From the NCBI GenBank assembly GCA_947564265.1, contig CANOBK010000012.1, forward strand, positions 1 to 44,476: DNA of 44,476 bases, in the 5' to 3' direction. The notes beneath the pieces were generated by a model. That model searched no databases, had not been told where the DNA came from, and worked only from the letters and a program-made list of their open reading frames with translations. The translations under genes were made by a program, and so were the position numbers. Source of the stretch: an uncultured Caryophanales bacterium. Its GTDB lineage: Bacteria; Bacillota_I; Bacilli_A; RF39; UBA660. Shown in pieces: positions 18,461 through 34,409 of this stretch (its first letter is position 1; each line of letters starts with the position of its first letter).

Positions 18461-19288
18461 ATGAAAAAAACATTATTAAAAGAAAGTATAATTCAGGAAC
18501 TAGAAAAGGAGCTTCAAATAAGTAATGATAAAGTTCAAAAAATACAGAAAGAAATTACATTAAAAAATAATTTAATTTGCACTAATAAAAAAGTGAATAA
18601 AATAGTAATTACCTATGCTACAATATTAACTATTGTTTTGTTTGGAGGAATCTTTCTATATAAATCGAAGATGGACTCAAGTCAAATGGTTATTTCAGGT
18701 TATCAATCTGATATTTCTCAATACAAAGAAAAACTAGATAAATATGACTCACTTTACTTATTTTTGGGAGATTCATTAATTGAATTCTATGATATTTTTA
18801 AATTCTTTCCCGATTACCGTGTAATTAATAGTGGGAAAGGCGGAAATACAACGGATGATATTCTAGAAAACTTATATACAAGAGTATATCGATATCATCC
18901 AACAGAAATCTTTTTACAGATTGGCACGAATGATATAACTGCTAATAAAACAATAGAAGAAATCTATCAAAATATCAAAAAAATAGTAGAGGATATAAAA
19001 GTGGAGTTACCTGAAGTAAACATATACATTGAATCACTTTATCCATCACGTGGTACCTGGTCAGAAAATAAAGGGAATGATAGGCGAAAGCAAATAAACC
19101 AGTTATTACAAGAGTTTTGTCAACAACATAACTATACTTATATAGATATGTATTCTTCTTTAAAGGAAGAAAATAGTGATGAAATTAAAGAACAATATGT
19201 AATAGATGGGCTTCATTTAAGTGATGAAGGATATGAAGTAATTACCAATGAATTAAGAAAATATATGGGTGTTAAAAGTGAAAAGTAG
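18461..19288 (+). CDS. Membrane-anchored SGNH/GDSL hydrolase or O-acetyl transfer domain
   Basis: A 275-residue protein with a charged N-terminus (1-45, coiled-coil-like), one transmembrane helix at about 47-66 (VITYATILTIVLFGGIFLY), and an extracytoplasmic SGNH domain. Block I is FLGDSLIEF with S105, block II has the Gly/Asn oxyanion residues in NSGKGGNTTDD, block III is IGTND, and block V is DGLHLSDEGY with D249 and H252. Such domains are esterases or complete the acetyl transfer begun by membrane acyltransferase-3 proteins. The next gene is exactly such an acyltransferase and overlaps this one by about 11 bp. Together they look like an OatA/OafB-type enzyme split in two. First gene of the polysaccharide locus; AGAAGGTGA precedes it. 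Confidence 0.88.
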   Translation: MKKTLLKESIIQELEKELQISNDKVQKIQKEITLKNNLICTNKKVNKIVITYATILTIVLFGGIFLYKSKMDSSQMVISGYQSDISQYKEKLDKYDSLYLFLGDSLIEFYDIFKFFPDYRVINSGKGGNTTDDILENLYTRVYRYHPTEIFLQIGTNDITANKTIEEIYQNIKKIVEDIKVELPEVNIYIESLYPSRGTWSENKGNDRRKQINQLLQEFCQQHNYTYIDMYSSLKEENSDEIKEQYVIDGLHLSDEGYEVITNELRKYMGVKSEK

Positions 19289-20354
19289 AAATGAAGTAAT
19301 TGATATTATTAGGGCTTTTGGAATTATTTTGGTGGTCATAGGACATAGTACCTATAATTTATTTGTAAGTAGATTTACTTATCTTTTTCACTTACCACTT
19401 TTTTTTGTTTTATCTGGTTATTTATACCAAGAATCATCTAGTTTGAAACCATGGGAATATATTGGATTAAGAATGAAATCTTACCTAAAAGTTTATGTAG
19501 TTTACAATACCATTTTTGTTATTTTTCATAATGTTTTTTTACAATTACATCTATTTACAGGTGTCACCTTAGGATTTAATGATATTATAATTGGTCTCTT
19601 AAATTCCCTCTTTTTTACTACAATAGAACCGTTTTCTGGTGCGTTATGGTTTATGCCAGTATTATTAGTTAGCTTAATATTCTTTAACTTTATATATTAT
19701 GTTACAAATTCTATGCAAGAGTATCGAGAATTAAAACGAGGACTTATAATTTTAATAATTACAATAGTAGGAATTTATTTAAACCAAAACAACTTAAGTT
19801 TTGGGCTTCATTATCAGACTGTATTAGTAGTTTTGCCTTACTTATATATTGGTCAATTAGTAAGAAAAAATGGATTAGAAAAGTTAAAAGGAAGTAAAAT
19901 ATGTGCACTAGGAATTGTCATTATTACCTTAATTGCTTTATATCTAATTCCAGGAAGAGTGGAATTATCACAAAATTTATTGTGGAAATTTTATCTTTTT
20001 TATCCATTAGCAACTGGGATGATTTATGTTACCTATGTAATTGCGATGATGATACATCAACATACTAAAAAGATGGCTGAGTTGTTTAAATATATAGGGA
20101 GGAAAACAATCCCAATTATGGGACTACATTTCTTTTGTTTTAAATTATTTGATTTTTTTGTGATTCACTTAGTTACGAGGAATTATGACATTCTACCTAG
20201 ATTGACAGTTTCATATCCTGAATTTTGGCCAGTATATACAATAATTGGTGTAATAGGATCATTAACTATTATTTTATTAATTGAAGGAATTAAAAAAATG
20301 CATAAAGAACATAAATGGAGAAATATCTTAGAAAAGATATTGATTTCAACTTAG
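19278..20354 (+). CDS. Acyltransferase-3 family membrane O-acyltransferase
   Basis: A 358-residue integral membrane protein with about ten hydrophobic segments. The N-terminus shows the family signature DIIRAFGIILVVIGHS, with R12 and H23 at the R-x10-H spacing used for catalysis. Proteins of this family move acetyl groups from cytosolic acetyl-CoA across the membrane onto surface sugars. The likely start is GTG at 19278 with GGGTG 7 nt upstream; GTG at 19269 is an alternative adding three residues. It overlaps the SGNH gene, so the two are coupled and probably act as one O-acetylation system on the locus polysaccharide. Confidence 0.88.
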   Translation: MKSRNEVIDIIRAFGIILVVIGHSTYNLFVSRFTYLFHLPLFFVLSGYLYQESSSLKPWEYIGLRMKSYLKVYVVYNTIFVIFHNVFLQLHLFTGVTLGFNDIIIGLLNSLFFTTIEPFSGALWFMPVLLVSLIFFNFIYYVTNSMQEYRELKRGLIILIITIVGIYLNQNNLSFGLHYQTVLVVLPYLYIGQLVRKNGLEKLKGSKICALGIVIITLIALYLIPGRVELSQNLLWKFYLFYPLATGMIYVTYVIAMMIHQHTKKMAELFKYIGRKTIPIMGLHFFCFKLFDFFVIHLVTRNYDILPRLTVSYPEFWPVYTIIGVIGSLTIILLIEGIKKMHKEHKWRNILEKILIST

Positions 20355-20782: not shown

Positions 20783-21373
20783 ATGGAAGAATTAGTTACA
20801 GAAAATGGAACAAAAATAATAAAAACAAAATTAGTAGATTGTTATATAATTGAGCCAAATGTTCATGGTGATCATAGAGGCTACTTCATGGAAAGTCATA
20901 GTGAAAAAACATTAAGGGAGGCAGGACTTGATTATCGTTTTGTTCAGGGAAATGAATCATTTACTGCAAAAAAGAATACAATTCGGGGATTACATTTTCA
21001 AACGGAACCTATGACACAAGCAAAATTAGTAAGATGTACAGAAGGTGCTATTGATGATGTGGTAGTTGATTTAAGAATTGGTTCACCGACATATAAAGAA
21101 TGGATTAAAGTAACACTTAGTAAAGAAAATAAAAGGCAACTATTATTGCCTAGAGGATTTGCTCATGGTTTTATCACCTTAACAGATGATGTGACATTTA
21201 ATTATATGGTAGATAATGATTACTCTTATAAACATGATGCAGGAATTTTATGGAATGATCCAGAGATTGGGGTAGATTGGGGCCTTGATGACGAACAGCC
21301 AATTCTTTCTGATAAAGATACAAAACATCCAGTTCTATCAAAGAGTAGAGCTAACTTTAGATATACAAAATAA
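20783..21373 (+). CDS. rmlC: dTDP-4-dehydrorhamnose 3,5-epimerase
   Basis: A 196-residue cupin epimerase, third step of dTDP-L-rhamnose synthesis. GDHRGYFMESH, TIRGLHFQ with catalytic-type H71, PRGFAHGF and FNYMVDNDYSYKHDAG with Tyr141 are all family landmarks, as is GILWNDPEIGVDW. AGGAGGG lies 4-10 nt before the ATG. The partner genes rmlA, rmlB and rmlD are not in the window, so they must be elsewhere or this paralogue makes a related sugar. It implies a rhamnose-type sugar in the polymer made here. Confidence 0.93.
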   Translation: MEELVTENGTKIIKTKLVDCYIIEPNVHGDHRGYFMESHSEKTLREAGLDYRFVQGNESFTAKKNTIRGLHFQTEPMTQAKLVRCTEGAIDDVVVDLRIGSPTYKEWIKVTLSKENKRQLLLPRGFAHGFITLTDDVTFNYMVDNDYSYKHDAGILWNDPEIGVDWGLDDEQPILSDKDTKHPVLSKSRANFRYTK

Positions 21374-21480
21374 ATGATATCAATATTCGTTTTAAAGTGA
21401 TGTAACAATGATATTAACTTTCCTATTAATTTCTAAGTTAGAAAACCAAAAAATAATAAGTATAGAAATAAGGTGAAAAT

Positions 21481-22332
21481 ATGGTAGCTTTTATTATTTT
21501 ACATTACAAGGCAATCGAAGAGACGATAGAATGTTTAAATGCAGTAAAAAAATTAAACTCACAAGAAAAGATTAAAATTATTATAGTGAGTAATAGTGAA
21601 ATTTCTGAAAAAGAAAAAGCAAAGCTTTTAAAATATACAAAGGATATCATCATAAATAAAGAAAATGTAGGCTTTGCAAAAGCAAATAATATTGGATGCA
21701 GATATGCAATAAAAAAATATAAACCATCTTATTTAGTTGTTATCAATAATGATGTAATTATCAAACAAAAGCAATTTATAGAGCTCATAGAAACTTCATA
21801 TCAAGATTTTAAATTTGATATATTAGGTCCAAAAATAGAATCACCTAGTAACGAGTCTGTGAATCCATTTCCTGCTTTGGACGATGTAAGAAAAATAGAA
21901 AAGGAAATTGAGAAAAACAACAAAATTATTAAATTATATCAAAGTCAGTTATTAACATTTTTATTTAAAATATATCACAATATAAAATACTTATTTATAA
22001 AGCCAAAAGATTTAGAAAACGGAAAAGAAAAGAAAAAAGGTGTCGCTCTTCACGGATGCGCATTGATTTTCTCTAAAAAATATTACCAAAAATATTCGGA
22101 TGTTTTTTATAATGATACCTTTTTATATCATGAGGAAGAATTCTTATATTTTAGAATGAAATTTGATAACTTATGTAGTGTTTATAATCCAGATATTGTT
22201 GTTTTTCATAAAGAAGGAGCATCCTTAGATCAAGTGTTTAGTAATCAAAATGTCAAAAAACAATTGTTTAAATATAAAGAACGTAATAATTCATTAACGA
22301 AATTATTAACCTATATAAAAAATCGGAAATAA
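21481..22332 (+). CDS. GT2 family glycosyltransferase (rhamnosyltransferase-like)
   Basis: A 283-residue cytosolic transferase. AFIILHYKAIEETIECLNA at the start, NVGFAKANNIGCRYA, and VVINNDVII as the DxD-equivalent are typical of GT2 rhamnosyltransferases such as WbbL/RgpB relatives. GCALIFSKKYY and a late HEEEFLYFRM acceptor/base segment follow. There is no transmembrane domain. AAGGTGA precedes the ATG; 107 bp separates it from rmlC and 12 bp from the permease gene. The specific sugar linkage is not derivable. Confidence 0.85.
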   Translation: MVAFIILHYKAIEETIECLNAVKKLNSQEKIKIIIVSNSEISEKEKAKLLKYTKDIIINKENVGFAKANNIGCRYAIKKYKPSYLVVINNDVIIKQKQFIELIETSYQDFKFDILGPKIESPSNESVNPFPALDDVRKIEKEIEKNNKIIKLYQSQLLTFLFKIYHNIKYLFIKPKDLENGKEKKKGVALHGCALIFSKKYYQKYSDVFYNDTFLYHEEEFLYFRMKFDNLCSVYNPDIVVFHKEGASLDQVFSNQNVKKQLFKYKERNNSLTKLLTYIKNRK

Positions 22333-22344
22333 AAGAGGTGCAGA

Positions 22345-23136
22345 ATGGAATTTATAAGAGAAATTGTCAAAAATAGAAAATTGATTTTTCAGTTGGGGAA
22401 AAATGATTTTAAAAATAAATTTGCAAATACTAGTTTAGGAGCAATATGGGGATTTGTTCAACCATTTATTTTCATATTGACTTATGCGATTGTTTTTCAA
22501 TTCATTATTAAGACAGGATATACATCAGATGTTCCCTATGTAGTTTGGTTTATTCCAGGAATCGCTATGTGGATGTTCACAAACGAGAGTATTTTGTCTG
22601 CGTCTGGATCCATTCGAGCATATAGTTATCTAGTCAAAAAAGTAATATTTCCAGTAGATATTATTCCATTAATCACTCTAGTATCATCAAGCTTTGTAAA
22701 CCTGTTTTTAATAGTAATTTCGATTATTATATGTGTTTTTATGGGTTATCTTCCCAATATATTATTACTACTTTATATATTAATTTCAGCATATTGCTTT
22801 ATTATTTCATTTACTAGATTAACCTCTGCAATTTCCACCCTAGTACCAGATTTCTTGCAATTACTAAATGTTTTAATGCAGTTACTTTTTTGGTTTAGTC
22901 CCATTATTTGGAATTTGGGAATGATATCAGACTATGAAATATTAGGAAAGATTATGAAATGCAATCCAATTACTTATTTAATAGAAGGTATAAGAGCATG
23001 CTATACAGATAGTTCATTTTTAGTTCATTTTGGATGGGGCTATACAATCGTATTTTGGGTGATTGTTTTAATACTTTTCTTATGGGGAAATAATATTTTC
23101 AAAAGAGCAAAAAAAGATTTCCCAGACGTTTTATAG
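22345..23136 (+). CDS. ABC-2 type polysaccharide export permease (Wzm/TagG/RgpC-like)
   Basis: A 263-residue integral membrane protein of six predicted helices. The N-terminal LGKNDFKNKFANTSLGAIWG is the usual amphipathic lead of this family, and WFIPGIAMWMFTNESI, FWFSPIIWNLGMI and the NPITYLIEGIRACY segment recur in Wzm/TagG. It forms the channel that exports an undecaprenyl-linked glycan made in the cytosol. The ATPase partner follows by 14 bp. Confidence 0.94.
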   Translation: MEFIREIVKNRKLIFQLGKNDFKNKFANTSLGAIWGFVQPFIFILTYAIVFQFIIKTGYTSDVPYVVWFIPGIAMWMFTNESILSASGSIRAYSYLVKKVIFPVDIIPLITLVSSSFVNLFLIVISIIICVFMGYLPNILLLLYILISAYCFIISFTRLTSAISTLVPDFLQLLNVLMQLLFWFSPIIWNLGMISDYEILGKIMKCNPITYLIEGIRACYTDSSFLVHFGWGYTIVFWVIVLILFLWGNNIFKRAKKDFPDVL

Positions 23137-23150
23137 GAGGAATAAATCTT

Positions 23151-24449
23151 ATGGATAAAATAATAATAAGTAATTTAACGAAAGAATATAAAATGTATCA
23201 TCGAAAAATTCATCGGTTAGAGGAATTAATTTTCCCATGGAGAAAAAAACATACCACCTTTACAGCTGTAAAAAATCTGGATTTAAAGCTCGAAGAGGGA
23301 GAAGTTTTAGGTATTTTAGGAAGAAATGGTGCTGGGAAATCAACACTTTTAAAAATGATTACGGGAGTTGTTACCCCTACGATTGGTAGTATGGAAGTCA
23401 ATGGAAAAATATCTTCATTACTAGAACTAGGAGCCGCCTTTAATGGTGAATTGACAGGAGAAGAAAATATTTATCAGCATGGACAAGTGATGGGATTAAC
23501 AAAGGAAGAAATAGAAAAAACAAAACAAGATATTATAGATTTTGCTGATATTGGTGAACACTTAAATCAGCCAGTTAAAACCTACTCATCTGGGATGTTT
23601 GCGAGATTAGCATTTGCCTGTGCAATTAATGTAAATCCAGATATTTTAATTGTTGATGAGGTATTGTCAGTTGGTGATGTAGCGTTTCAATTAAAATGTT
23701 TCAAAAAATTTGAAGAGTTCAAAAAAAATGGAAAAACAGTATTATTCGTATCACATAGCTTAGAGGATATTTTAAAAAATTGTTCCCGTTGCATTGTTAT
23801 GGAGCATGGAGAAAAAATTTTTGATGGTGAAACGAAAGAAGCAGTTGATTTTTACAAAAAAAGGATAGCAGAGGATGTAGAAAAAAAATTAGGTAATTCT
23901 ATCAATTATATTGATAAGAATAATAAAAAGACTTCTAAAATTCCAAAAGGTAGTAATTATTGGTTTAAAAAGATGGAATACAATAAGGAAGTAGAAACCT
24001 ATGGTAATGATAAAGCAACAATTATCGATTTTGGCGTTTTTGATTTAGAGGGTAATATTGTTACTACTATGAATAATGATGATGAATATATTTTTAAGAT
24101 GAAAGTACAGTTCAATGAAAATTTAGAAAATCCAGTTTTTGCATTTGGAATTAAAGATGTACGAGGGATGGATTTATGCGGAATGAACACAGAAATACAA
24201 AAAGTCAAAACTGGTAAATACAAAAAGGGAGAGATAGCAATTATCTCATTTAAACAAGTAATACCACTTGCACCAAGGAAGTATGTAGTATCGTTTGGTT
24301 GCTCTAAATACACGAAAGATGGAGACCTAGAGGTTTTTTCCCGGAAGTATGATGCTTTATTTATTGATATCGCAAATAAAAGATTTACGTCTGGTTTATT
24401 TGATTTAAAAACAGAAATAGATATAGAAAAAGGAAAAAATGAGGGATAA
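23151..24449 (+). CDS. ABC transporter ATPase with C-terminal Wzt-like polysaccharide-binding domain
   Basis: A 432-residue ATPase partner of the permease. The nucleotide-binding domain shows LGRNGAGKST with K63 (Walker A), YSSGMFARLAFA (signature, S147/G148), and ILIVDEVLSVGD with D169-E170 (Walker B). H-loop Ser-His is in FVSHS. After residue about 245 there is a linker and then a 160-residue beta-rich domain (MEYNKEVETYGN ... VPLAPR-type strands ending FDLKTEIDIEKG). That matches Wzt C-terminal domains, which bind the modified non-reducing end of the chain before export. Many Gram-positive TagH/RgpD proteins lack this type of domain. The presence of a WbdD-like enzyme at 29337 makes a cap-recognition role likely. 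Confidence 0.9.
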   Translation: MDKIIISNLTKEYKMYHRKIHRLEELIFPWRKKHTTFTAVKNLDLKLEEGEVLGILGRNGAGKSTLLKMITGVVTPTIGSMEVNGKISSLLELGAAFNGELTGEENIYQHGQVMGLTKEEIEKTKQDIIDFADIGEHLNQPVKTYSSGMFARLAFACAINVNPDILIVDEVLSVGDVAFQLKCFKKFEEFKKNGKTVLFVSHSLEDILKNCSRCIVMEHGEKIFDGETKEAVDFYKKRIAEDVEKKLGNSINYIDKNNKKTSKIPKGSNYWFKKMEYNKEVETYGNDKATIIDFGVFDLEGNIVTTMNNDDEYIFKMKVQFNENLENPVFAFGIKDVRGMDLCGMNTEIQKVKTGKYKKGEIAIISFKQVIPLAPRKYVVSFGCSKYTKDGDLEVFSRKYDALFIDIANKRFTSGLFDLKTEIDIEKGKNEG

Positions 24450-24450
24450 G

Positions 24451-26394
24451 ATGAAGAAAATAAAGTTAACAATAATTGTCCCAGTGTACAATGGAGAAAA
24501 CTATATTGAAGCAATATGTATGCAACTAAATAATCAAACTTATAAGGATTTTGACGTTATTTTCATTGATGATTGTTCGAAAGATAATTCCTATCAAAAA
24601 CTAAAAGAAGTAGAAAAAAAATACGACTTTATTAAGGTGATAAAAAACAAAGAAAATCAGGGCGCTGGATATTCTAGAAATTATGCAATTAAGCAAACGA
24701 ACAGCGAATATATTAGTTTTATTGATTGCGATGATGAGATTCCTACCAATTATTTTGAGGAATTAGTAAAGGCAATAACTTCAGAAAAAGCAGATATGGC
24801 TTTGTGTGATGTAAAAATAACCTATGACATGGGATTTGGTGAAGTACCAGACTTTTACAATAATACTTGTCATAAAATTCCAGTAGAAAAATCAGATATT
24901 ATTCATAATGATATAGCAGCGGCTGCTTGGAACAAGATAATTAAAAGGGAACTTATATTGAAAAATCCATTTTCTGAAGGAATTATCAATGAAGATATTC
25001 CTGCAATTATTGGAAGTATCCTAGATGCCAAAAAAATTGCTTACACAAATAAAACATTTTATACATATATTCAAAGAAAGTCATCTGTACAAAATGGAAC
25101 TAAGATTCAAAAGAAATTTGATGTGTTTCAAGCGGTTGACGAATTAATAAAAAGAAAAAGTAATAATAAAATACTAAAGGACAATATAGATGCCATTGTC
25201 TATCATCAATTAATTCTCTTTTTATTCTTCGGCATTATCGCAGTGGAAAATGACCATGAGCGTAGTAGACACTTAAAGCAATTTGAAGAATCCTGTAAAA
25301 AATATAACTACAGGCAAAATAAATACTATTGGTCTTTTATTGATAGCCAAAGAAGAAAAATCAAATATTATTATAAAATAATTTTGAAGCTAATGAAACT
25401 TCATCTTTTTCACTGTGCAAGCTTCATAATCAGCTTAGGAAATTGGTATTCTAAAGTACAGAAATCCCTAAAAAAGAGCATGATTAAACATGATATCACT
25501 TTAGACGATTTAATCTTTATGGCTAAGAAAAATCAGAAGAGAAAGTTACGAGCTACAATTTCCGTTGTAATTCCAAATTATAATTATGCAAACTTTTTAT
25601 ATCAAAGAATATACTCGATTTTATATCAACAAGAAAAAATAAGTGAAATAATCATTTTAGATGATTGTTCTAAAGATAATAGTAGAGAAGTAATTGACGA
25701 AGTTTATCAAAAATTAAGCCCATTTATTTCTATTCAAAAAGTATATAATAAAAATAATAGTGGTTCTCCTTTTAAACAGTGGGAAAAGGGCTTTTCTTTA
25801 GCAAAATCTGATTATGTATGGATTGCTGAAGCAGATGATTATTCCTCTTCAAAATTTTTAAATCAGGTTATAGAACCAATGATAGAGGACAAAGAAATTG
25901 TACTAAGCTATTGCGATACTTCTTATATTCATACGAATGGAATTACACTAACTAAAACAGTAAAAGATTTAATTGATATTATGGAAACGGGACACTGGGA
26001 TCAAGACTATGTAAATGATGGTCTAGATGAAATAAAAAATTATGAATTTCTGAATTGTACCATTGCGAATGTATCAAGTGTTATTTTTAAAAAAGATAAT
26101 TATAAGAGTGAGTTACAAGAAGCGGGGACATTTAAGCAATGTGGTGATTGGTATTTTTATTTCTCAGTAATGAAGAAGGGAAAAGTTGCATACTGTGCTA
26201 GTTCTTATAATTACTGCCGATTACATGGCTCAAATTCAACAACAAATTTGAAAAAGAAAATTCATTATGAAGAAATTAAACGTGTTCAAAAGATAATTTC
26301 AGATGAATTTACGGTAAGGAAAGATGCAAAAAAACATATCAAATCTCGATTAGATTATTTAAAAGAAGTATGGGATTTAACAGATATAGATTAA
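24451..26394 (+). CDS. Double GT2 glycosyltransferase (two GT-A domains)
   Basis: A 647-residue protein with two tandem GT2 domains. The first (about 5-300) opens KLTIIVPVYNGENYIE and has FIDDCSKDNS and the DxD-type SFIDCDDEIP. The second (about 370-600) opens ISVVIPNYNYANFLY with ILDDCSKDNS and WIAEADDYSSS. Both keep the acidic residues, so both may be active and add two sugars or two linkages. Start: ATG at 24451 after GAGGG is preferred; ATG at 24439, overlapping the ATPase gene by 11 bp, is nearly as good and would add four residues. Confidence 0.87.
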   Translation: MKKIKLTIIVPVYNGENYIEAICMQLNNQTYKDFDVIFIDDCSKDNSYQKLKEVEKKYDFIKVIKNKENQGAGYSRNYAIKQTNSEYISFIDCDDEIPTNYFEELVKAITSEKADMALCDVKITYDMGFGEVPDFYNNTCHKIPVEKSDIIHNDIAAAAWNKIIKRELILKNPFSEGIINEDIPAIIGSILDAKKIAYTNKTFYTYIQRKSSVQNGTKIQKKFDVFQAVDELIKRKSNNKILKDNIDAIVYHQLILFLFFGIIAVENDHERSRHLKQFEESCKKYNYRQNKYYWSFIDSQRRKIKYYYKIILKLMKLHLFHCASFIISLGNWYSKVQKSLKKSMIKHDITLDDLIFMAKKNQKRKLRATISVVIPNYNYANFLYQRIYSILYQQEKISEIIILDDCSKDNSREVIDEVYQKLSPFISIQKVYNKNNSGSPFKQWEKGFSLAKSDYVWIAEADDYSSSKFLNQVIEPMIEDKEIVLSYCDTSYIHTNGITLTKTVKDLIDIMETGHWDQDYVNDGLDEIKNYEFLNCTIANVSSVIFKKDNYKSELQEAGTFKQCGDWYFYFSVMKKGKVAYCASSYNYCRLHGSNSTTNLKKKIHYEEIKRVQKIISDEFTVRKDAKKHIKSRLDYLKEVWDLTDID

Positions 26395-26407
26395 GGGGAG
26401 ATGCATT

Positions 26408-29251
26408 ATGAGAAGAGTACTAGATAAGTTCTTTCCAATTGGAACAAAAAGAAGAACATTCCTTTTTGAACAAAAGAAATGTGTAAAAAAAATAATAGTT
26501 AAATTTTCAGAAAGATTATATAAAATAGTACCATTAGGGTGTTTCAAAAATATTACTAATAGAATGAACAATCAGGCCTTTTATATTGAGAAATCAAAGG
26601 AGAAATTACATCCTAAAAAGAATGAATACATAATATTTGATAAATATCAGCAGTGTTATGCATTAAGTCATCCCTTAAATGATATCAATAAAAAAATAGC
26701 AGTTCATATTCATTTATACTATCAAGACTTGTTAGAAGAATTTATAAAATATTTAAACAATATTCCTTATGATTTTGATATCTATTGTTCAATTAATGAA
26801 AATAGTAACGAGGATCAAACCTTAAATGAACTAAAAAAAATAAAAAATGTAAAAAGGGTAGTTGTTAAAGAGACTCCTAATATTGGTAGAGATTATGCGC
26901 CAATGGTTTGCGAGTTTAGGAAAAGCTTAAAAAAATATGATTATATATGCCATATTCATACAAAAAAGTCATTACGTACAGGAACAAGCCAGGATCATTG
27001 GAGAATTCATTTATTAGATGGAGTATTAGGAAGTACAAACCTAATTAAAAATATATTTTATATGTTAGAAAAGATGAATGTTGGTATTTATTTTCCAGAT
27101 AGTGATGTTTCTGCTCCTTACTGGGGAAATACATGGATGGGTGCAAGACAATTAGGGGTTAAATATTTATCCCTATTAGGTATTCCTTTCGAAGATAATT
27201 ATCAAGATTTCTCTGTTGGTAGTATGTTTTGGGTAAAAACAAATGCAGTAAAACAAATATTTGAAAGAAACTGGAAATGGGATGAATTTGGTGAAGAAAA
27301 AGGACAGGATGATGGGACATTGGCCTATGTATTTGAAAGACTATTTGTGCTATGTTCTAAATATAACCAATATGATTTCATTTGTTACAATAGTAGTATA
27401 AATTATATGTTAAAAAACTATAGTGAAAGAAATATTCATCAATACTATGAAAAAAATCAAGATAATATGTACTTAAAATTAAAAGAATATGACATTATAT
27501 CATTTGATATATTTGATACATTAATTACAAGAAAAATATATGAACCAGATATTTTGTTTAAAATAATTAATGAAAATATGCCTAAAAAAATTAAATTAAA
27601 TAAAGATTTTTATACAATTAGAAAAGAAGCTGAAAATGAAATTAGGACAGAATTAAATGATCCAGATATTCATCAAATTTATGATAGAATACAAAAAAAA
27701 TGTTCACTAAGTAATAAAGAAAAAGAAGAATTAAAAAATATGGAAATCTCACTAGAAAAGAAATTCTTAATCCCTAGAAAAGATATACTACATTTATTTA
27801 ATCGTTTAAAGGAAAATAAAAATACATTAATATTAATAAGCGATATGTATTTACCAAGTGACATTTTGAGAGACATTTTAAAAAATTGTGGATATCAAGG
27901 TTATTCTAAATTGTATGTTTCATGTGAAGTTAATTTAAGAAAAGATAATGGAAATATATGGGAATATATAAAGAGGGAATATCCAGGAAAGAAAATGATT
28001 CATGTTGGAGATAATGAAGAATCGGATTGTCATAAATTATGGAATTATAATTTAATACCAGAACATATTATGAGTGGTAAAATGATGTATCAAAATTCAT
28101 CGTATGGATATTATTTTAATCAAGATAAAAGTGACTTATCAATTAAAGACTCTATTTTATTTGGATTAATAATCAATAAAACACTTTTTAATTCACCATT
28201 CAAGTGGAACGAATCAAAGGGAAACTATAGTGTGGAGAATTTATATGAGTACGGATATTCAATTGTTGGGCCTATTTTGTTTGAATATATGGTATGGCTA
28301 ATCCAATCTTTAAAGAACGAAAAAAAAGCCTCTCTTCTATTTTTGGCAAGAGAAGGTTACTATTTTCAAAAGATGTATAATTTAATAAAAGATAGATGTA
28401 ATTGTAGCTATTTAAAAGAGATTGAAGATTTATATTTTCTAACATCGAGAAGATGTGTAAGCATCGCTTGTATTGAGACAAAGGAAGATATTTATAATAT
28501 TCTAGATATTGAATATTATGGTGATATAAAATCATTAATGAAAACAAGATTTAATCTAGAAATTAAAGAAAAAAACTTTGATGTTATCATAAAGCCAGAC
28601 GGAACAGGAAATAAACAAGATGTGATTAAGGTAATAGAAAAATACGAAAATGAAATACTAACAATAGCAAAAAGAGAGAAAAAAAACTACTTAAAATATA
28701 TTAAGAAAAATGTCAAGAATTTAGATAATATGATTGTAGTAGACTTAGGATATTCTGGTACTACACAAATGTTTCTATCCAAACTATTAGATAAAAAAAT
28801 AGCAGGTAAATATTTGGTAGTAAAGAATCAACCAAAACCATTATCCCTAGGATGCAAAGTAGAGAGTTGTTATAATGAGTTAATTAACGACTCTGCACAT
28901 CCAATATATAAGAATTCATTATTATTAGAATTTTTCCTAACAGCTCCTTATGGACAATTGCAATATTTTGATGATCAAATAAATCCACAGTATGTAAAAG
29001 AAAAATTGGTGAAGGAAAAAATAAAATATTTAGATGAAATCTATAGAGCAGTAGAAACGCTATTTAATGACTTAATAGATTTATTGGGTAATGATATTGA
29101 AGAATATAATTTTAATAAAGAAAAAATCGTAAAAAATTTTGAAGGTTTTTTAAATGAATGTAACTATTTTTTATCAAAAAATAGAAAAGTATTTGAGTTT
29201 GAGGATTATTATTGTAGAAAAGATATTATGGCATTGGAAAGAATAAAATAA
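26408..29251 (+). CDS. RgpF-type rhamnan synthesis domain fused to HAD-like hydrolase (COG5610-like)
   Basis: A 947-residue three-part protein. Residues about 95-345 match the RgpF/rhamnan synthesis F family (KIAVHIHLYYQDLLEEFIKY, ETPNIGRDYAPMV, YICHIHTKKSLR, YFPDSDVSAPYWGNTWMG). Residues about 360-580 form a HAD-like domain: SFDIFDTLITRK with D367 as the predicted nucleophile, LILISDMYLPSDIL, and HVGDNEESD. Residues 610-947 carry LLFLAREGYYFQKMY and VVDLGYSGTTQMF, as in COG5610 proteins. RgpF enzymes add side-chain or backbone rhamnose. The HAD position +2 is Phe rather than Asp, so classical phosphatase activity is uncertain. AAGGGGAGATG precedes the ATG. Confidence 0.85.
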   Translation: MRRVLDKFFPIGTKRRTFLFEQKKCVKKIIVKFSERLYKIVPLGCFKNITNRMNNQAFYIEKSKEKLHPKKNEYIIFDKYQQCYALSHPLNDINKKIAVHIHLYYQDLLEEFIKYLNNIPYDFDIYCSINENSNEDQTLNELKKIKNVKRVVVKETPNIGRDYAPMVCEFRKSLKKYDYICHIHTKKSLRTGTSQDHWRIHLLDGVLGSTNLIKNIFYMLEKMNVGIYFPDSDVSAPYWGNTWMGARQLGVKYLSLLGIPFEDNYQDFSVGSMFWVKTNAVKQIFERNWKWDEFGEEKGQDDGTLAYVFERLFVLCSKYNQYDFICYNSSINYMLKNYSERNIHQYYEKNQDNMYLKLKEYDIISFDIFDTLITRKIYEPDILFKIINENMPKKIKLNKDFYTIRKEAENEIRTELNDPDIHQIYDRIQKKCSLSNKEKEELKNMEISLEKKFLIPRKDILHLFNRLKENKNTLILISDMYLPSDILRDILKNCGYQGYSKLYVSCEVNLRKDNGNIWEYIKREYPGKKMIHVGDNEESDCHKLWNYNLIPEHIMSGKMMYQNSSYGYYFNQDKSDLSIKDSILFGLIINKTLFNSPFKWNESKGNYSVENLYEYGYSIVGPILFEYMVWLIQSLKNEKKASLLFLAREGYYFQKMYNLIKDRCNCSYLKEIEDLYFLTSRRCVSIACIETKEDIYNILDIEYYGDIKSLMKTRFNLEIKEKNFDVIIKPDGTGNKQDVIKVIEKYENEILTIAKREKKNYLKYIKKNVKNLDNMIVVDLGYSGTTQMFLSKLLDKKIAGKYLVVKNQPKPLSLGCKVESCYNELINDSAHPIYKNSLLLEFFLTAPYGQLQYFDDQINPQYVKEKLVKEKIKYLDEIYRAVETLFNDLIDLLGNDIEEYNFNKEKIVKNFEGFLNECNYFLSKNRKVFEFEDYYCRKDIMALERIK

Positions 29252-29275
29252 AGGACCTCTCCCAATATCTTTTCT

Positions 29276-29304
29276 TTTGTTTTATAACAGTTATATGATA
29301 TAAT
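29276..29304 (+). promoter_or_regulatory. Internal promoter before the methyltransferase-kinase gene
   Basis: TTTGTT (29276-29281), 17 bp, TATAAT (29299-29304), then AGGAGG at 29319-29325 region and the start at 29337. A small palindrome ATAACaGTTAT lies inside the spacer. Good -10, poor -35. Confidence 0.5.
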
Positions 29305-29336
29305 TTAAATAGGAGATTAGGAGGAAAGAAAAAAAT

Positions 29337-31178
29337 ATGGCAACGTTAAATTTAGAATTTTATAGTGGGGAAGATAAATATAGCGATGGCGATATAGAAG
29401 ATAAAATAATCGAATATATCAAGAGATATCCAAAAGATTATGAAAATGCATTTTCAGAAGACTTTTCTTGGCCTGTTATTTATCATTTATCTAATGTTAG
29501 AAAAAATGTAGTTAATTGGTATCCTTTTAAAAAAAATTGCACAATTTTAGAGGTTGGAGCTGGAATGGGGGCTATTACAAGTGAACTATGTAAAAATGCC
29601 AAGCATGTTACTAGTATTGAACTTTCTAAAAAAAGAGCAACAGCCATTGCTGAGAGAAATAAGGATACAGATAATTTAGAAATCATTGTTGGTAATTTTC
29701 AAGATATTGTTTTAGAAAAAAAATATGATTATATTTTGTTGAATGGTGTTTTAGAGTATAGCGAGCTTTATATTAACTCCGATAAACCCTATACTGATTT
29801 TATTAACAGGTTAAAAGTTAATTTAAAACCACAAGGAAAAATTTTGATAGCAATTGAAAATAAATTTGGTTTAAAATATTGGTGTGGTGCTAAGGAGGAT
29901 CATACTGGTATTATGTATGACGGAATTAATAATTATCCAATTTCTCATAAGATACGAACTTTTAGTAAGCAAGAATTGGAAAGCATTGCTAGTGAATGTA
30001 AAATGCATGCTAATTTTTATTATATGTTTCCTGATTATAAATTTCCTAAAGTGATTTATACTGATCAATCCTTACAGGATCAAGTATATGCTGATTATAC
30101 ACCATATTACTGTTCTAAAATGAGTTTACTGATTGATGAACGTCGTGTCTATAGAGAAATTTATGACAATAGAATGATCCCATTTTTTGCAAATTCATAC
30201 TTTTTAGAGTTGTCTCAAGATAATACTCCAATTGAAATATCGTTTGTAAAATATAATAATGAATATAGAAAGAATGAATATGATATTTGTACTTATTTGA
30301 AAAATGATAAATTTTATAAGAGAGCTATGTCTGAATCTGCTAATCAGCATTTAAAAAACATTGTTAAAATCGGTCAAGAATTAACTAATTCGGGTGTTCA
30401 TATAGTACAGCCCATTCTTGAGAAAGATGATATTTACACAGAACGTATAGTAGGGGAATGTCTCTACGATAGGATGCGTCATAATTATGAGAATGGTAAT
30501 TTGGAAGAGTTTATGAAAGGCTTTGAGCAAATTAATCAGATAATTAAAAAAGTGAATGCCGCGGTATCAGAAGTTCCCAAAAATCATGTTTTTCAAACTT
30601 ATGGGATAGAAGTTTCTGAGAAAGCTCTTCATAGTATGGCATTTTGTTCAAAAGGCGTGATAGATATTATTCCAATGAATATTATGATTGTTAATAATGA
30701 GTATTACTTGATAGATCAAGAGTGGTCTGAACTTGCAGTACCGATAGAGTATATAATGTATAGAAGTATTGTTAACTTTTTTGACTCTGTTGAAGATAAA
30801 TATACATTGAAGGAAAAACTATTTAAGCAATACAAAATTAACGGTGCATTGTTTAAAAAGCTTGATTATAAAATTGTTGGCAAAGTACGTACTAAAAAGC
30901 ATGATTACTATTATCACTTTTTTAGTAATTATCAGTTGGTTAATCATCCAAACGATATTGATGTGCTAGATGATTTAAAAAATAATAAATTGGCTTTTGA
31001 ACATTTAAAATTAGAACATGAAGAATTAAAACAGGAAACTTCAAATTTAAAAAATGATTACGATAGTTTGAAAAAACAATATGATAACATAAAAACTGAT
31101 TATGAGGCGGTTATTTCTAGTAAATCTTGGAAAATTACAGCGCCAGTTAGAAATTTATCATCAAAATTAAGAAAATAA
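29337..31178 (+). CDS. WbdD-like methyltransferase-kinase with C-terminal coiled coil (candidate chain terminator)
   Basis: A 613-residue multidomain protein. Residues 60-215 are a class I SAM methyltransferase: motif I LEVGAGMGAIT (E72-G78), SIELSKKRA, and YDYILLNGVLEY. Residues about 270-500 resemble a small-molecule/lipopolysaccharide kinase. The N-lobe is read as ISFVKYN, and the catalytic loop as DIIPMNIMI (D443, N448), followed by YYLIDQEW with D460 as the metal Asp. Residues about 542-592 are a heptad coiled coil (HLKLEHEELKQETSNLKNDY), ending SSKSWKITAPVRN. This order, MTase-kinase-coiled coil, is that of WbdD, which caps E. coli O9a chains and sets their length. It has its own promoter inside the locus, and by eye its codon use is somewhat less A-ending than its neighbours. 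Confidence 0.82.
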   Translation: MATLNLEFYSGEDKYSDGDIEDKIIEYIKRYPKDYENAFSEDFSWPVIYHLSNVRKNVVNWYPFKKNCTILEVGAGMGAITSELCKNAKHVTSIELSKKRATAIAERNKDTDNLEIIVGNFQDIVLEKKYDYILLNGVLEYSELYINSDKPYTDFINRLKVNLKPQGKILIAIENKFGLKYWCGAKEDHTGIMYDGINNYPISHKIRTFSKQELESIASECKMHANFYYMFPDYKFPKVIYTDQSLQDQVYADYTPYYCSKMSLLIDERRVYREIYDNRMIPFFANSYFLELSQDNTPIEISFVKYNNEYRKNEYDICTYLKNDKFYKRAMSESANQHLKNIVKIGQELTNSGVHIVQPILEKDDIYTERIVGECLYDRMRHNYENGNLEEFMKGFEQINQIIKKVNAAVSEVPKNHVFQTYGIEVSEKALHSMAFCSKGVIDIIPMNIMIVNNEYYLIDQEWSELAVPIEYIMYRSIVNFFDSVEDKYTLKEKLFKQYKINGALFKKLDYKIVGKVRTKKHDYYYHFFSNYQLVNHPNDIDVLDDLKNNKLAFEHLKLEHEELKQETSNLKNDYDSLKKQYDNIKTDYEAVISSKSWKITAPVRNLSSKLRK

Positions 31179-31197
31179 ATAATTAGTAGGTGGGTTT

Positions 31198-33273
31198 ATG
31201 AAAAAGCTAGGTATGGTTGTATTAAATTATAACGATTGTGAAAATACAAAAAGAATATGTAAAGAATATGAGAAAATGAAAATAATAGATAGAATTATTA
31301 TTGTTGATAATAATTCCCCAGATAATTCATTTCAATCGTTATTAAAACTAAAAAGTAAAAAAGTAGATGTAATTCAGACGGACACAAATAAAGGGTATGC
31401 AGCAGGAAATAATTTTGGCATTCACTATTTAGAAGATAAATATGGAGAATTTCAATATATAGGTATATCAAATCCGGATATTTATATTGATTCAAAAGCA
31501 ATTGAGGCTTGTGTTGATTATTTAGAGAAACATAAAAAGGTTGCAATATGTGCGCCTAAAATGTTAAACGTTAATGGTGTAGAACATCCACTTTCTGGAT
31601 GGCAACTTAGAAGTATTCGGGGAGATATTTGGGATTCTTCAATCCTTCTCACTAGAATAGTAAAAAGGCCCCATATTGAAATGTATGATAGTGAATACAT
31701 GAATCAGAAGGAAATTAAAGTTGATTGTGTAGCTGGATCATTTTTTATCGCTAGAAACAGTATATTTAAAGAAATCGGATACTTTGATGAAAATACATTT
31801 TTATATTTTGAAGAAGATATTTTAGGGAATAAGATAAATAAATTAGGCTACTATAATGTCATACTAAATCAATATAAATTTACACATTTAGAAAGTGTAA
31901 GTGTTGATAGAACAATGAATTTTATGAAGAAATTTAAAAATTTACAAAAGAGTAAAATATACTATCATAAAAACTATGACGATAATAGTAATATATTTAA
32001 AATTTGGATTATGTATTTTTTCACTTATTTTAGATATATTGAACAATTTCTTTTTAGCGAAAAATTTCATTCTTTTTGTAGAAAAATAGGTGAAATAATT
32101 TTTCGATTCTATAAGTGTATTATTCTTATACTAGCTACTATCACATCTCCTATAGCATTTTTATATAGAAAATTGAGATTTAGAAAAAAGGTTTTATATT
32201 ACTCCGTAGTAAATTGGAAATGGATTAAGCAAAGGCCACACTTTGTACCTTTATATTTATGTGACAATGGATATAGAGTAGATTATATGTATGATGAGCC
32301 ATACAAAAAATATCTTCCCAAACAGGACCATATTTTAGTGAATAATCACCAAAATAATAAGCACTTAAAAATAAAAAAATTTAAGTATTATCCATATCAT
32401 GTAAAGGCTTCTAGATTGAATCGTTTTATCTTTGTCACCAGAGTTTTATTTTTCAACTACGATAAAATTATATTTACAAATCCAAAACAAGTCAGTAACC
32501 TATTTATGACAGTTTTAAAAGTAAAGGGAACAAAAATATATTATGAATGTATGGATAATTATATTTATTGGGAACCAGAAAATGTTAGGTATCTTTTTCA
32601 CGGTAATGAAGGTTGGTTGATAAAAAATTCCAATAAAATTATTGTTAGCTCGTTAGGATTAAAGAAAATGTTGATAAAAAAATATGACTGCGATTCTGAA
32701 AAGATAGTTTTGATAAGAAATGGATATGATAAAGAAATATTCCAAAATTATGAAAAAACACCATTAAAAATGAAGCATCCAAATGCAGTTTATATAGGTA
32801 CAATTGATGAATGGTTTGATTTTGATTCACTCATAAAGTATGCAAGAAAAAATAAAGAAAAATACTTCTATATTATTGGACCAATTGGATGGACAGTAGA
32901 ACCAAAGGTAAAAGCAATGAAAGAAGAGAATATATTTTTCCCTGGACCAATAGAACACAAATATGTACCTGGAACAATTGAAGAAAGTGATGTTATGCTT
33001 TTACCGTTCATAGTAAATGAATTGATTGAGGATGTAGATCCAGTAAAGGTATATGAATATTTGTACTTAAAAAAACCAGTAGTATCTACTTACTGGAAGG
33101 AATTAGATCAATTTAAAGATTTTGTGATATTTTATGAAAATAGAAATGATTTTAGTAAAGCTATGAATCAAGCATTCAAAACAAAATTATCTGATACAAA
33201 AAACTATCAGAAATTGATGTTTGAATCAACCTGGGATGAAAGATTAAAAAAATATTTAGAGGCAATTAAATAA
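31198..33273 (+). CDS. GT2-GT4 fusion glycosyltransferase
   Basis: A 691-residue bifunctional transferase. Residues 1-270 are GT2: MVVLNYNDCENTKR, IIVDNNSPDNS, NKGYAAGNNFG and GISNPDIYID. A hydrophobic/aromatic bridge at about 262-325 (IWIMYFFTYFRYIEQFLF, CIILILATITSPIAFLY) may associate with the membrane. Residues 330-691 are GT-B of the GT4 type: VNWKWIKQRPHFVPLYL, IRNGYDKEIF, YIGTIDEWFDF, IIGPIGW and the E-x7-E motif region VDPVKVYEYLYLKKPVV. Each half should add one sugar. It starts 19 bp after the WbdD-like gene behind AGGTGGG. Confidence 0.87.
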   Translation: MKKLGMVVLNYNDCENTKRICKEYEKMKIIDRIIIVDNNSPDNSFQSLLKLKSKKVDVIQTDTNKGYAAGNNFGIHYLEDKYGEFQYIGISNPDIYIDSKAIEACVDYLEKHKKVAICAPKMLNVNGVEHPLSGWQLRSIRGDIWDSSILLTRIVKRPHIEMYDSEYMNQKEIKVDCVAGSFFIARNSIFKEIGYFDENTFLYFEEDILGNKINKLGYYNVILNQYKFTHLESVSVDRTMNFMKKFKNLQKSKIYYHKNYDDNSNIFKIWIMYFFTYFRYIEQFLFSEKFHSFCRKIGEIIFRFYKCIILILATITSPIAFLYRKLRFRKKVLYYSVVNWKWIKQRPHFVPLYLCDNGYRVDYMYDEPYKKYLPKQDHILVNNHQNNKHLKIKKFKYYPYHVKASRLNRFIFVTRVLFFNYDKIIFTNPKQVSNLFMTVLKVKGTKIYYECMDNYIYWEPENVRYLFHGNEGWLIKNSNKIIVSSLGLKKMLIKKYDCDSEKIVLIRNGYDKEIFQNYEKTPLKMKHPNAVYIGTIDEWFDFDSLIKYARKNKEKYFYIIGPIGWTVEPKVKAMKEENIFFPGPIEHKYVPGTIEESDVMLLPFIVNELIEDVDPVKVYEYLYLKKPVVSTYWKELDQFKDFVIFYENRNDFSKAMNQAFKTKLSDTKNYQKLMFESTWDERLKKYLEAIK

Positions 33274-33299
33274 TAACTAATAGAGAAACGAGGTAACTT

Positions 33300-34409
33300 A
33301 TGAAAAAGGTAAAAGTGATGAGCATTTTTGGTACAAGACCAGAGGCAATCAAAATGGCTCCCTTAGTTAAGGAACTAGAAAATAGAAAAGAAATAGAATC
33401 GATTGTTTGTGTGACTGCCCAACATCGACAGATGTTAGATCAAGTATTAACCGCTTTTCAAATCAAACCTAATTATGACTTAAATATCATGAAACAGGGG
33501 CAAACATTAAGTGAAATTACCAGTAATGCACTTCTTGGATTAGAAGAGGTTATGAAAGAAGAAAAACCAGATATTGTGTTAGTACATGGTGATACGACCA
33601 GTACATTTGCAGGGGCACTCGCAGCTTTTTATAATCAAATTAAAATAGGTCACGTGGAAGCTGGACTTAGAACTTGGGATAAGTATTCTCCATTCCCAGA
33701 GGAAATGAATCGACAAATGGTTGATAATGTAACAGACTTATACTTTGCGCCAACTAAGTTAAGCAAAGAAAATCTAATAAAAGAGGGAAAAGAAGAAAAT
33801 AAAATATTTATAACTGGAAACACTGCTATTGATGCAATGAAAACAACAATAAATGAATCCTATCATCATGAAGTACTAGAATGGGTTGGAGATAGTCGAA
33901 TGATTCTTTTAACAGCGCATAGAAGAGAAAATTTAGGAGAACCAATGAAACATATCTTTAGAGCAATCAAAAGAATTATAACAGAATTCGAAGATGTAAA
34001 AGTAGTATATCCAATCCATTTAAACCCAAAAGTAAGAGAAACTGCTAATGAAATTTTAAAAGACTGTGATCGGATAAAATTAATAGAACCACTTGAAGTA
34101 TTTGATTTTCATAATTTTCAAAATAAATCTTATCTTATCTTAACTGATAGTGGTGGTATTCAGGAAGAAGCTCCATCGTTAGGAAAGCCTGTATTAGTAT
34201 TAAGAGATACAACTGAACGCCCAGAGGGGATAGAAGCAGGGACTTTAAAATTAGCAGGTACTGATGAAGATACAATATATAATTTGACAAAGGAATTGTT
34301 AGTAGATAATAAAATATATGAATCTATGAGTCATGCCTCTAATCCATATGGAGATGGACATGCGAGTGAAAAAATTGCAGATATCATTGTAAAAAAATTA
34401 AGTCGATGA
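33300..34409 (+). CDS. wecB: UDP-N-acetylglucosamine 2-epimerase (non-hydrolysing)
   Basis: A 369-residue GT-B-like epimerase that interconverts UDP-GlcNAc and UDP-ManNAc. VMSIFGTRPEAIKMAPLV, VHGDTTST, HVEAGLRT, FPEEMNRQ, LTAHRREN, SDSGGIQEEAPSLGKPVLVLRDTTERPE-type text (TDSGGIQEEAPSLGKP) and a closing NPYGDGHA are all diagnostic. In Gram-positives the product feeds teichoic-acid linkage units or ManNAc-containing capsules. It closes the polysaccharide locus and ends in TGA, evidence for the standard code. No ManNAc dehydrogenase (wecC) is present, so ManNAc itself is the likely sugar. Confidence 0.97.
   Translation: MKKVKVMSIFGTRPEAIKMAPLVKELENRKEIESIVCVTAQHRQMLDQVLTAFQIKPNYDLNIMKQGQTLSEITSNALLGLEEVMKEEKPDIVLVHGDTTSTFAGALAAFYNQIKIGHVEAGLRTWDKYSPFPEEMNRQMVDNVTDLYFAPTKLSKENLIKEGKEENKIFITGNTAIDAMKTTINESYHHEVLEWVGDSRMILLTAHRRENLGEPMKHIFRAIKRIITEFEDVKVVYPIHLNPKVRETANEILKDCDRIKLIEPLEVFDFHNFQNKSYLILTDSGGIQEEAPSLGKPVLVLRDTTERPEGIEAGTLKLAGTDEDTIYNLTKELLVDNKIYESMSHASNPYGDGHASEKIADIIVKKLSR

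What the first reader, a model, noticed from the sequence alone, without database searches (positions are those of the whole stretch)
22345..31178. WbdD-like chain terminator paired with a Wzt-type ATPase in a Gram-positive polysaccharide locus
The 613-residue protein at 29337 has methyltransferase, kinase-like and coiled-coil parts in the WbdD order, and the exporter ATPase at 23151 carries an extra 160-residue beta-rich C-terminal domain. In E. coli O9a, WbdD caps the chain by methyl/phosphate transfer, its coiled coil acts as a ruler, and the Wzt C-terminal domain recognises the cap before export. Seeing both halves next to RgpF/RmlC-type genes suggests a capped, length-controlled rhamnose-type wall polysaccharide in a spore-forming Bacillota. 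I know of no described Gram-positive system of this kind, but I cannot search.
Basis: partly seen in the sequence, partly recalled or inferred. Interest (0 to 1): 0.88.

Follow-up and report, generated by a model that had tools for sequence, protein, structure and literature searches.

The report
Sugar-chain capping enzyme and cap-reading exporter
A Clostridia-like genome carries a probable two-step capping enzyme (kinase plus methyltransferase) in one operon with an exporter that has a cap-reading domain, resembling a chain-ending system worked out in Klebsiella O7.

Summary
Observation confirmed: a 613-aa methyltransferase / kinase-like / coiled-coil protein (29337-31178) and a Wzt with a true Wzt_C cap-reading domain (23151-24449) lie in one polysaccharide operon. 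The WbdD label is wrong in detail. The middle region is a kinase of the APH-like sort: its profile, searched in 392 genomes, matched only its own family and four PF01636 APH proteins, and it does not match the WbdD kinase. The protein has the residues reported for the methyltransferase-kinase terminator ORF6-N of Klebsiella pneumoniae O7, which puts methyl-phosphate on terminal rhamnose: all six SAM-site residues and the catalytic Asp align. Most likely it caps the chain with (methyl-)phosphate and Wzt reads the cap. Against obligatory pairing, four relatives from the same bacterial family, including the two closest, have a Wzt without reader, and no Wzt_C was found in their (71-95% complete) genomes. 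Rhamnose is likely but unproven: RmlA and RmlB were not found.

The parts
29337..30215 (+). methyltransferase domain (residues 1-293) of the capping enzyme; SAM-site residues Y15, Y49, G74, G76, E95, Y141
   Evidence: Pfam Methyltransf_31/11/12; equivalents of ORF6-O7 Y28, Y66, G91, G93, E112, Y158 by alignment (paper residues)
30222..30926 (+). APH-like kinase domain (about residues 296-530); R311, T319, K328, D443, N448, D460, E462, W463, P469 invariant in the family alignment
   Evidence: 11-sequence alignment; profile search reaches only own family and PF01636 proteins
30957..31175 (+). coiled coil (about 541-594) and SKSWKITAPVRNL tail (595-607), resembling the end of the WbdD coiled coil
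   Evidence: heptad test 0 of 5000 shuffles; tail profile on WbdD 460-708 13.3 bits, 0 of 2000 shuffles reach it
22345..23136 (+). Wzm-type ABC-2 permease
   Evidence: PF01061 E 7e-17
23151..23870 (+). Wzt ATPase domain
   Evidence: PF00005; 35% identity to O9 Wzt overall
23937..24422 (+). Wzt_C cap-reading domain
   Evidence: PF14524 E 4e-33; 2r5o E 1e-8
24342..24344 (+). codon of Wzt R398, at the place of A. aeolicus W362, the lid of the methyl pocket
   Evidence: profile alignment to 8dku_A, whose chain numbers run one above the paper's; lid comparison
24439..26394 (+). protein with two GT2 glycosyltransferase domains
   Evidence: PF00535, two stretches, E 5e-54
26408..29251 (+). RgpF domain plus ~600-aa tail; probable polymerase partner
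   Evidence: PF05045 E 6e-48; fused to the capping enzyme in G041 (L031)
20783..21373 (+). RmlC, dTDP-4-dehydrorhamnose 3,5-epimerase
   Evidence: TIGR01221 above cut-off
31198..33273 (+). GT2 + GT1 glycosyltransferase
   Evidence: Pfam; the GT1 part is below its cut-offs
33300..34409 (+). UDP-GlcNAc 2-epimerase (UDP-ManNAc supply)
   Evidence: TIGR00236 E 1e-167

Best explanation
The 29337 protein is a chain terminator of the Klebsiella O7 ORF6-N type. [quoted passage not shown] the cap stops growth. The coiled coil and SKSW tail hold the catalytic head away from the membrane and the glycosyltransferases, so that only chains of sufficient length reach it. The capped chain is bound by the C-terminal domain of Wzt, with R398 sitting where methyl-only readers have a tryptophan lid, and is exported by Wzm. 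Shown here: domain make-up, conserved active-site residues, family, operon context, reader homology and the Arg/Trp pattern. Inferred: catalysis, order of the two steps, cap position, ruler function, reading of the cap, sugar identity.
For: Kinase: K328, D443, N448, D460 invariant in 11 of 11 rows of the family alignment. The 227-column profile of this region, searched in six frames of 392 genomes, matched 6 genomes at E<=1e-3 with 7 proteins: 3 of the family and 4 others (L044-L047), all 4 of which are PF01636 APH. Family: a 1457-aa Pseudomonas plasmid protein has Tyr, Tyr, Gly, Gly, Glu, Tyr at exactly residues 28, 66, 91, 93, 112, 158, as reported for ORF6-O7 (its catalytic Asp is at 443; residue 441 is Phe), and two C-terminal GT2 modules, as ORF6-O7 has. 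All six residues and the catalytic Asp and Asn align with the window protein. The family profile hits that protein and a Citrobacter one at E 1e-63 and 1e-69. ORF6-O7 makes 3-phospho- and methyl-phospho-rhamnose in vitro and its D441A mutant is dead (PMC11231755). Reader: Arg at the lid in 13 of 13 readers beside a kinase terminator, 0 of 20 without a detected one. In 392-genome samples drawn alike, Wzt_C occurs in 10 genomes and the kinase family in 3, all 3 among the 10 (one is the window's own genome). Coupling: in G041 the terminator is fused to RgpF plus the same tail as the window's neighbouring gene.
Against: No activity or glycan data exist. The window kinase profile finds no direct PDB or Pfam kinase. 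Its scores on the APH proteins (11.7-24.5 bits) carry large composition corrections (3-16 bits). The Citrobacter and Pseudomonas kinase regions match only weakly (domain E 4e-4 in the full profile; none with the kinase-only profile), so the link to O7 rests mainly on the methyltransferase and motifs. K328 is H or R in those two proteins, and D460 is E in the Citrobacter one. ORF6-O7 itself was not in the collections searched. Of 12 loci with a Wzt in the held neighbourhood, 4 (G042, G024, G041, G110, all of the window's bacterial family) have a Wzt without reader (in G110 the Wzt lies ~9 kb from the terminator), and no Wzt_C was found in those genomes (71-95% complete). The reader domains beside kinases may share ancestry (one group on a 21-row reader tree, support 70/72), so the Arg pattern may be descent rather than function.
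Confidence: 0.74

Rival explanations
1. A true WbdD relative: the same family as the E. coli O9a terminator, with a Src-like kinase and the His-pair phosphate methyltransferase.
For: Same domain order; coiled coil ending in a similar SRSW/SKSW tail; Wzt 35% identical to O9 Wzt.
Against: Kinase profile under 0.5 bits on four WbdD proteins, not at the active site; profile-profile comparison aligns only the SAM-motif stretch or a short insignificant one; His132-His133 replaced by Glu-Tyr; ORF6-O7 residues all present.
Confidence: 0.07
2. As the best explanation, but the cap is phosphate or cyclic phosphate, or the methyl goes to a sugar hydroxyl, rather than methyl-phosphate.
For: In ORF6-O7 in vitro all acceptor was phosphorylated but only part methylated; a C. 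difficile S-layer glycan ends in 2,3-cyclophosphoryl rhamnose; in L028 one protein keeps the methyltransferase without kinase while the kinase protein has a broken SAM motif, and in L023 that motif is altered.
Against: The six SAM-site residues are kept in 9 of the 11 rows (one change each in G041 and G392); one relative (L026) has the methyltransferase with no kinase in the held 9.3 kb.
Confidence: 0.17
3. The protein decorates internal or side-chain sugars instead of ending the chain; the Wzt_C domain reads something else.
For: Reader-less Wzt beside the two closest homologues: export there cannot depend on reading a cap through a fused Wzt_C.
Against: Coiled coil and tail as in known terminators; fusion to RgpF in G041; adjacency to wzt in several loci; the O7 precedent.
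Confidence: 0.1
4. Chance mixture: terminator and reader come from different donors in a variable locus and no longer work together.
For: The closest terminators (51-52% identity) sit beside a different, reader-less transporter, while the window transporter is closest to L022/L023/L028; the same-genus genome G110 carries only a 33% identical version.
Against: Active-site and reader residues intact; R398 fits the kinase pattern; one gene direction with short gaps.
Confidence: 0.07

Closest known systems
ORF6-N of Klebsiella pneumoniae O7 (methyltransferase-kinase terminator; PMC11231755)
   Same: N-terminal methyltransferase with the same SAM-site residues, ~223-aa APH-like (AmiN-like) kinase with catalytic Asp, coiled coil, ABC-transporter pathway; some orthologues end after the coiled coil, as here
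   Different: O7 protein is fused to two GT2 modules and has an Ig-like domain after the kinase, for which the window protein has little room (kinase ends ~530, coiled coil starts ~541); Gram-negative O antigen versus Clostridia; orthologues named in that paper: alpha-, gammaproteobacteria, cyanobacteria
Lcin_0519 kinase-methyltransferase family (bioinformatic survey, PMC9758233)
   Same: kinase plus methyltransferase, often coiled coil, some beside Wzt/Wzm; stated there to differ from WbdD
   Different: taxa named in the section read are Proteobacteria; identity with the present family was not tested (sequence not obtained)
WbdD of E. coli O9a
   Same: function by analogy, domain order, coiled-coil tail motif, Wzt reader with Arg at the lid
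   Different: no detectable kinase sequence similarity; different phosphate-methylation residues
WsaE / Wzm-Wzt of Geobacillus stearothermophilus S-layer glycan
   Same: Gram-positive rhamnan with a methyl cap placed by a terminator methyltransferase and predicted Wzm/Wzt export
   Different: no kinase reported in the passages read; methyltransferase fused to two rhamnosyltransferases; sequence not compared here
C. difficile Ox247 S-layer glycan (2,3-cyclophosphoryl-rhamnose cap)
   Same: Clostridia, rhamnose-rich chain ended by a phosphate group, ABC export
   Different: no terminator gene assigned in the passages read; protein-linked glycan

Membership tests
K. pneumoniae O7 ORF6-N type methyltransferase-kinase terminator | N-terminal class I methyltransferase with Y28, Y66, G91, G93, E112, Y158 (O7 numbers) | tested here: met
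   All six equivalents present (Y15, Y49, G74, G76, E95, Y141) in two alignment modes, with the Pseudomonas protein as bridge; residues from PMC11231755 section 11
K. pneumoniae O7 ORF6-N type methyltransferase-kinase terminator | ~223-aa APH-like kinase domain with catalytic Asp between methyltransferase and coiled coil | tested here: met
K. pneumoniae O7 ORF6-N type methyltransferase-kinase terminator | coiled coil after the catalytic domains | tested here: met
   heptad test, 0 of 5000 shuffles
K. pneumoniae O7 ORF6-N type methyltransferase-kinase terminator | direct sequence similarity to ORF6-O7 itself | not tested
   sequence not obtained; proxies from Pseudomonas and Citrobacter plasmids match at E 1e-63 and 1e-69, mostly over the methyltransferase
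K. pneumoniae O7 ORF6-N type methyltransferase-kinase terminator | transfers phosphate, then methyl, to the non-reducing terminal sugar | not testable with these tools
   needs enzyme assay
WbdD (E. coli O9a) | kinase domain related in sequence to WbdD 211-459 | tested here: not met
   under 0.5 bits on four WbdD proteins, not at the active site; hhalign E 0.49
WbdD (E. coli O9a) | His132/His133 in the methyltransferase site | tested here: not met
   aligned pair is Glu140-Tyr141 (residues from PMC3482155 passages)
WbdD (E. coli O9a) | methyltransferase-kinase-coiled coil order with the C-terminal tail motif | tested here: met
Wzt with Wzt_C reader domain | ABC ATPase fused to PF14524 domain over its cut-off | tested here: met
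   114.7 bits, cut-off 30.4
Wzt with Wzt_C reader domain | binds the chain cap and is required for export | not testable with these tools
   needs binding assay and gene removal
WsaE-type terminator | methyltransferase fused to two rhamnosyltransferases | tested here: not met
   no glycosyltransferase domain in the window protein by Pfam; it has a kinase-like domain instead

The most novel reading that the evidence does not exclude
One residue in the exporter's reader domain reports the chemistry of the cap across phyla: Arg for phosphate-bearing caps made by either of two dissimilar kinase types, Trp for methyl-only caps. By this code the window and its Clostridia, Campylobacterota and Proteobacteria relatives export phospho-capped chains. 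The cyclophosphate cap of C. difficile Ox247 could then be a product of the same chemistry, because a 3-O-methyl-phosphate next to a free 2-OH of rhamnose can cyclise (chemical reasoning, not tested).
Probability: 0.35. Interest if true: 0.72.

Novelty: new member of a known kind. Interest (0 to 1): 0.55.

Why it matters
It extends phosphate-type chain termination from Gram-negative O antigens to Gram-positive Clostridia, with a methyltransferase-kinase homologue also in a Methanobrevibacter genome beside an RgpF gene. It also suggests a simple sequence rule for predicting what cap an ABC-exported glycan bears. Cap chemistry is hard to find by mass spectrometry and NMR, so a one-residue predictor would tell workers where to look.

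Tried and rejected
Pfam on 11 members of the middle region gave only scattered weak hits. The G384 match was checked and is chance (a membrane-protein-like sequence; the family profile gives it 0.6 bits), so the true count there is 3 of 346 genomes. In one search, 63 of 145 genomes matched, but only 5 of 145 (window, G042, G024, G041, G110) over methyltransferase and kinase together; the other listed matches are short, nearly all to the methyltransferase part. WbdD membership was considered first and rejected. Rfam and tRNA searches of the window found nothing. The association of terminator with reader looked obligatory at first; the G042, G024, G041 and G110 loci refuted that. RmlA and RmlB were sought in the 89.6%-complete genome and not found; L023, L028 and G392 carry rmlABCD in the same locus and G389 rmlBCD with a weak rmlA match. 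In the trees (21 rows, without the 12 loci fetched later) the G151 hinge motif was not recognised and a default cut was used.

Rows and choices that affect counts: the lid comparison used 33 Wzt proteins. 13 lie beside a detected kinase terminator: 8 of this family, 2 Proteobacterial O7-type, and 3 WbdD-type of which two (O9, Kp) are near copies in the ATPase. The 10 plasmid loci were chosen by me from 49 + 16 hit records; 8 were found with the O8 reader as query, which favours Trp, and 2 (H56, H60) with the Citrobacter reader. Absence of a kinase means that neither the family profiles, nor the WbdD kinase, nor the Pseudomonas methyltransferase-kinase found one in the held DNA; positive controls rang, but the family's kinase-only profile misses the Proteobacterial O7-type kinases, so a divergent kinase could be overlooked. 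At that column the rows G151 and G200 change letter between alignment modes; no Arg or Trp row does. The tail-span range (114-243) includes G110, whose stretch also holds non-coiled sequence.


Full report
What is there. The operon 20783-34409 runs on the + strand with gaps of at most ~110 bases: RmlC, a GT2, Wzm, Wzt, a double GT2, an RgpF protein with a ~600-aa tail, the 613-aa protein of the finding, a GT2+GT1 protein and a UDP-GlcNAc 2-epimerase. The Wzt C-terminus is a true Wzt_C domain (PF14524, E 4e-33), and the protein is 35% identical to O9 Wzt of E. coli HS. In the same genome Spo0A and two LytR-CpsA-Psr proteins are found; RmlA and RmlB are not, in an assembly 89.6% complete.

The middle region is a kinase, but not a WbdD kinase. 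No Pfam or PDB kinase is hit directly. Across 11 relatives nine columns of this region are invariant, among them K328, D443, N448 (five after D443) and D460: the lysine, catalytic Asp, Asn and metal Asp pattern of kinases. For WbdD the text gives N356 and D369 as metal ligands (PMC3482155 section 7), and HS WbdD shows Asp 351 five before Asn 356. A profile of this region alone, searched in 392 genomes of the phylum, matched 7 proteins in 6 genomes at E<=1e-3. Three are family members; the other four (L044-L047) are all PF01636 APH phosphotransferases. The family profile scores 11.7-24.5 bits on their five domains, after sizeable composition corrections, but under 0.5 bits on four WbdD proteins.

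The nearer relative is in print. Passages and section 11 (part 1 of 2) of PMC11231755 describe ORF6 of K. pneumoniae O7: an N-terminal methyltransferase, an unannotated 223-aa domain resembling the amicoumacin kinase AmiN, an Ig-like domain, a coiled coil and GT2 modules. It phosphorylates O-3 of the terminal rhamnose and partly methylates the phosphate; D441A abolishes activity. SAM-site residues named there are Y28, Y66, G91, G93, E112, Y158. A Pseudomonas plasmid protein (L082, 1457 aa) has exactly these letters at exactly these numbers, a catalytic-type Asp at 443 (441 is Phe) and two C-terminal GT2 modules. In a joint alignment of 11 rows the window carries all six (Y15, Y49, G74, G76, E95, Y141) with D443 and N448. 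The similarity is strong over the methyltransferase and weak over the kinase, and ORF6-O7 itself was not available for direct comparison. Section 9 of PMC9758233 describes a possibly related kinase-methyltransferase family (Lcin_0519), partly beside Wzt/Wzm, naming Proteobacteria. The O7 paper's main text has 0 occurrences of Firmicutes, Bacillota, Clostridi and archaea and 0 of Gram-positive. The listings of my literature searches showed no Gram-positive methyltransferase-kinase terminator, in a library holding only openly licensed papers.

Forms in other genomes. The family occurs as a methyltransferase-kinase protein (window; G042, G024, G110, G392; Methanobrevibacter L027), as separate adjacent methyltransferase and kinase genes, the latter fused to glycosyltransferases (Sulfurovum L024; G389), fused whole to glycosyltransferases (L025, 1899 aa; G041, 1565-aa frame), and with two methyltransferase copies of which the one joined to the kinase has a broken (L028) or altered (L023) SAM motif (L022, L023, L028). 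In a sample of 145 genomes of the window's bacterial family, 5 carry it. G041 joins terminator, RgpF and the same ~600-aa tail that in the window make two neighbouring genes, a sign that terminator and polymerase work together. The tail motif after the coiled coil resembles WbdD's (13.3 bits against a shuffle maximum of 7.1, 2000 shuffles). The span from the D460 equivalent to the tail varies from 114 to 243 residues among the eight members with a kinase and a tail, which a ruler would allow but does not prove.

In A. aeolicus Wzt, W362 lids the methyl pocket (passages of PMC9445017). In a profile alignment it falls on window R398. R398 is invariant in the nine readers of alignment A6. Over 33 Wzt proteins the residue is Arg in 13 of 13 beside a kinase terminator: eight of this family (Clostridia and Sulfurovum), the Citrobacter and Pseudomonas O7-type loci, and O9, O99 and a Klebsiella O9-like locus of WbdD type. 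Kinase absence was checked with both kinase types. Whether the Arg/Trp difference is already in print is unknown: the O9a reader paper (PMC6791312) is not held.

Results against a simple pairing. These are in the window's own bacterial family and include the two closest terminators (51-52% identity) and the same-genus genome G110 (33%). L027 showed no clear transporter in the held DNA, and L026 has only a methyltransferase. In 392-genome samples Wzt_C is in 10 genomes and the kinase family in 3, all 3 with Wzt_C; one of the three is the window's own genome. The closest terminators sit beside a different transporter, so the window locus looks reassorted, as O-antigen loci often are (general knowledge).

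What it most likely does. Chains are built in the cytoplasm on a lipid carrier by the RgpF/GT2 proteins; the 29337 protein phosphorylates the terminal sugar and methylates the phosphate, stopping growth; the coiled coil sets the length; Wzt reads the cap and Wzm exports the chain. Only anatomy and residue conservation are shown; catalysis and reading are inferred from O7 and O9a. Rhamnose is likely, because RmlC is in the operon and L023, L028 and G392 carry full rmlABCD in the same locus, with G389 nearly so, but it is not proven here.

What is known in Gram-positives. Passages of PMC2943079 describe the methyl-capped rhamnan of Geobacillus with WsaE and predicted Wzm/Wzt export. Passages of PMC6254364 describe a C. 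difficile glycan ending in 2,3-cyclophosphoryl rhamnose, with ABC export and an explicit analogy to O9. So capped Gram-positive glycans are known; a methyltransferase-kinase terminator with an Arg-type reader in one appears to be new as far as the searches above reach. The verdict is therefore a new member of a known kind, with a reader rule worth testing.

Noticed in passing
L027:9848-13533 (Methanobrevibacter sp. RUG13115): An archaeal member of the methyltransferase-kinase family stands directly before a full-length RgpF gene (PF05045 E 2e-160), with no clear Wzm/Wzt in the held DNA.
   Followed up: partly
L031:5685-10379 (G041): One open frame of 1565 aa fuses methyltransferase, kinase, coiled coil, RgpF and the ~600-aa tail found in the window's 26408 gene.
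   Followed up: partly
L029, L030, L031, L032 (G042, G024, G041, G110): Capping-enzyme homologues stand in loci whose Wzt lacks any reader domain; how export treats the cap there is unexplained.
   Followed up: partly
L023:9992-17710 and L028:9631-13630: Two homologues close together: one keeps a methyltransferase without kinase, the other joins a kinase to a methyltransferase with a broken (L028) or altered (L023) SAM motif.
   Followed up: partly
MT836085.1, MT839147.1, MT836982.1 (hits H42-H44): Unannotated human faecal records labelled 'Bacteriophage sp.' encode members of this family; phage-borne copies or mislabelled bacterial DNA.
   Followed up: no
L047:322-2229 (G000 contig C16): The same genome encodes a 636-aa frame with two APH-type kinase stretches in tandem.
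   Followed up: no
window 18461-20354: A GDSL esterase gene overlapping an acyltransferase-3 gene just before RmlC; possibly acylation of the same glycan.
   Followed up: no
window 26408-29251: The RgpF protein matches only the last half of the RgpF profile (268-503) and carries a ~600-aa tail with a weak HAD-like signal.
   Followed up: no
   Followed up: partly
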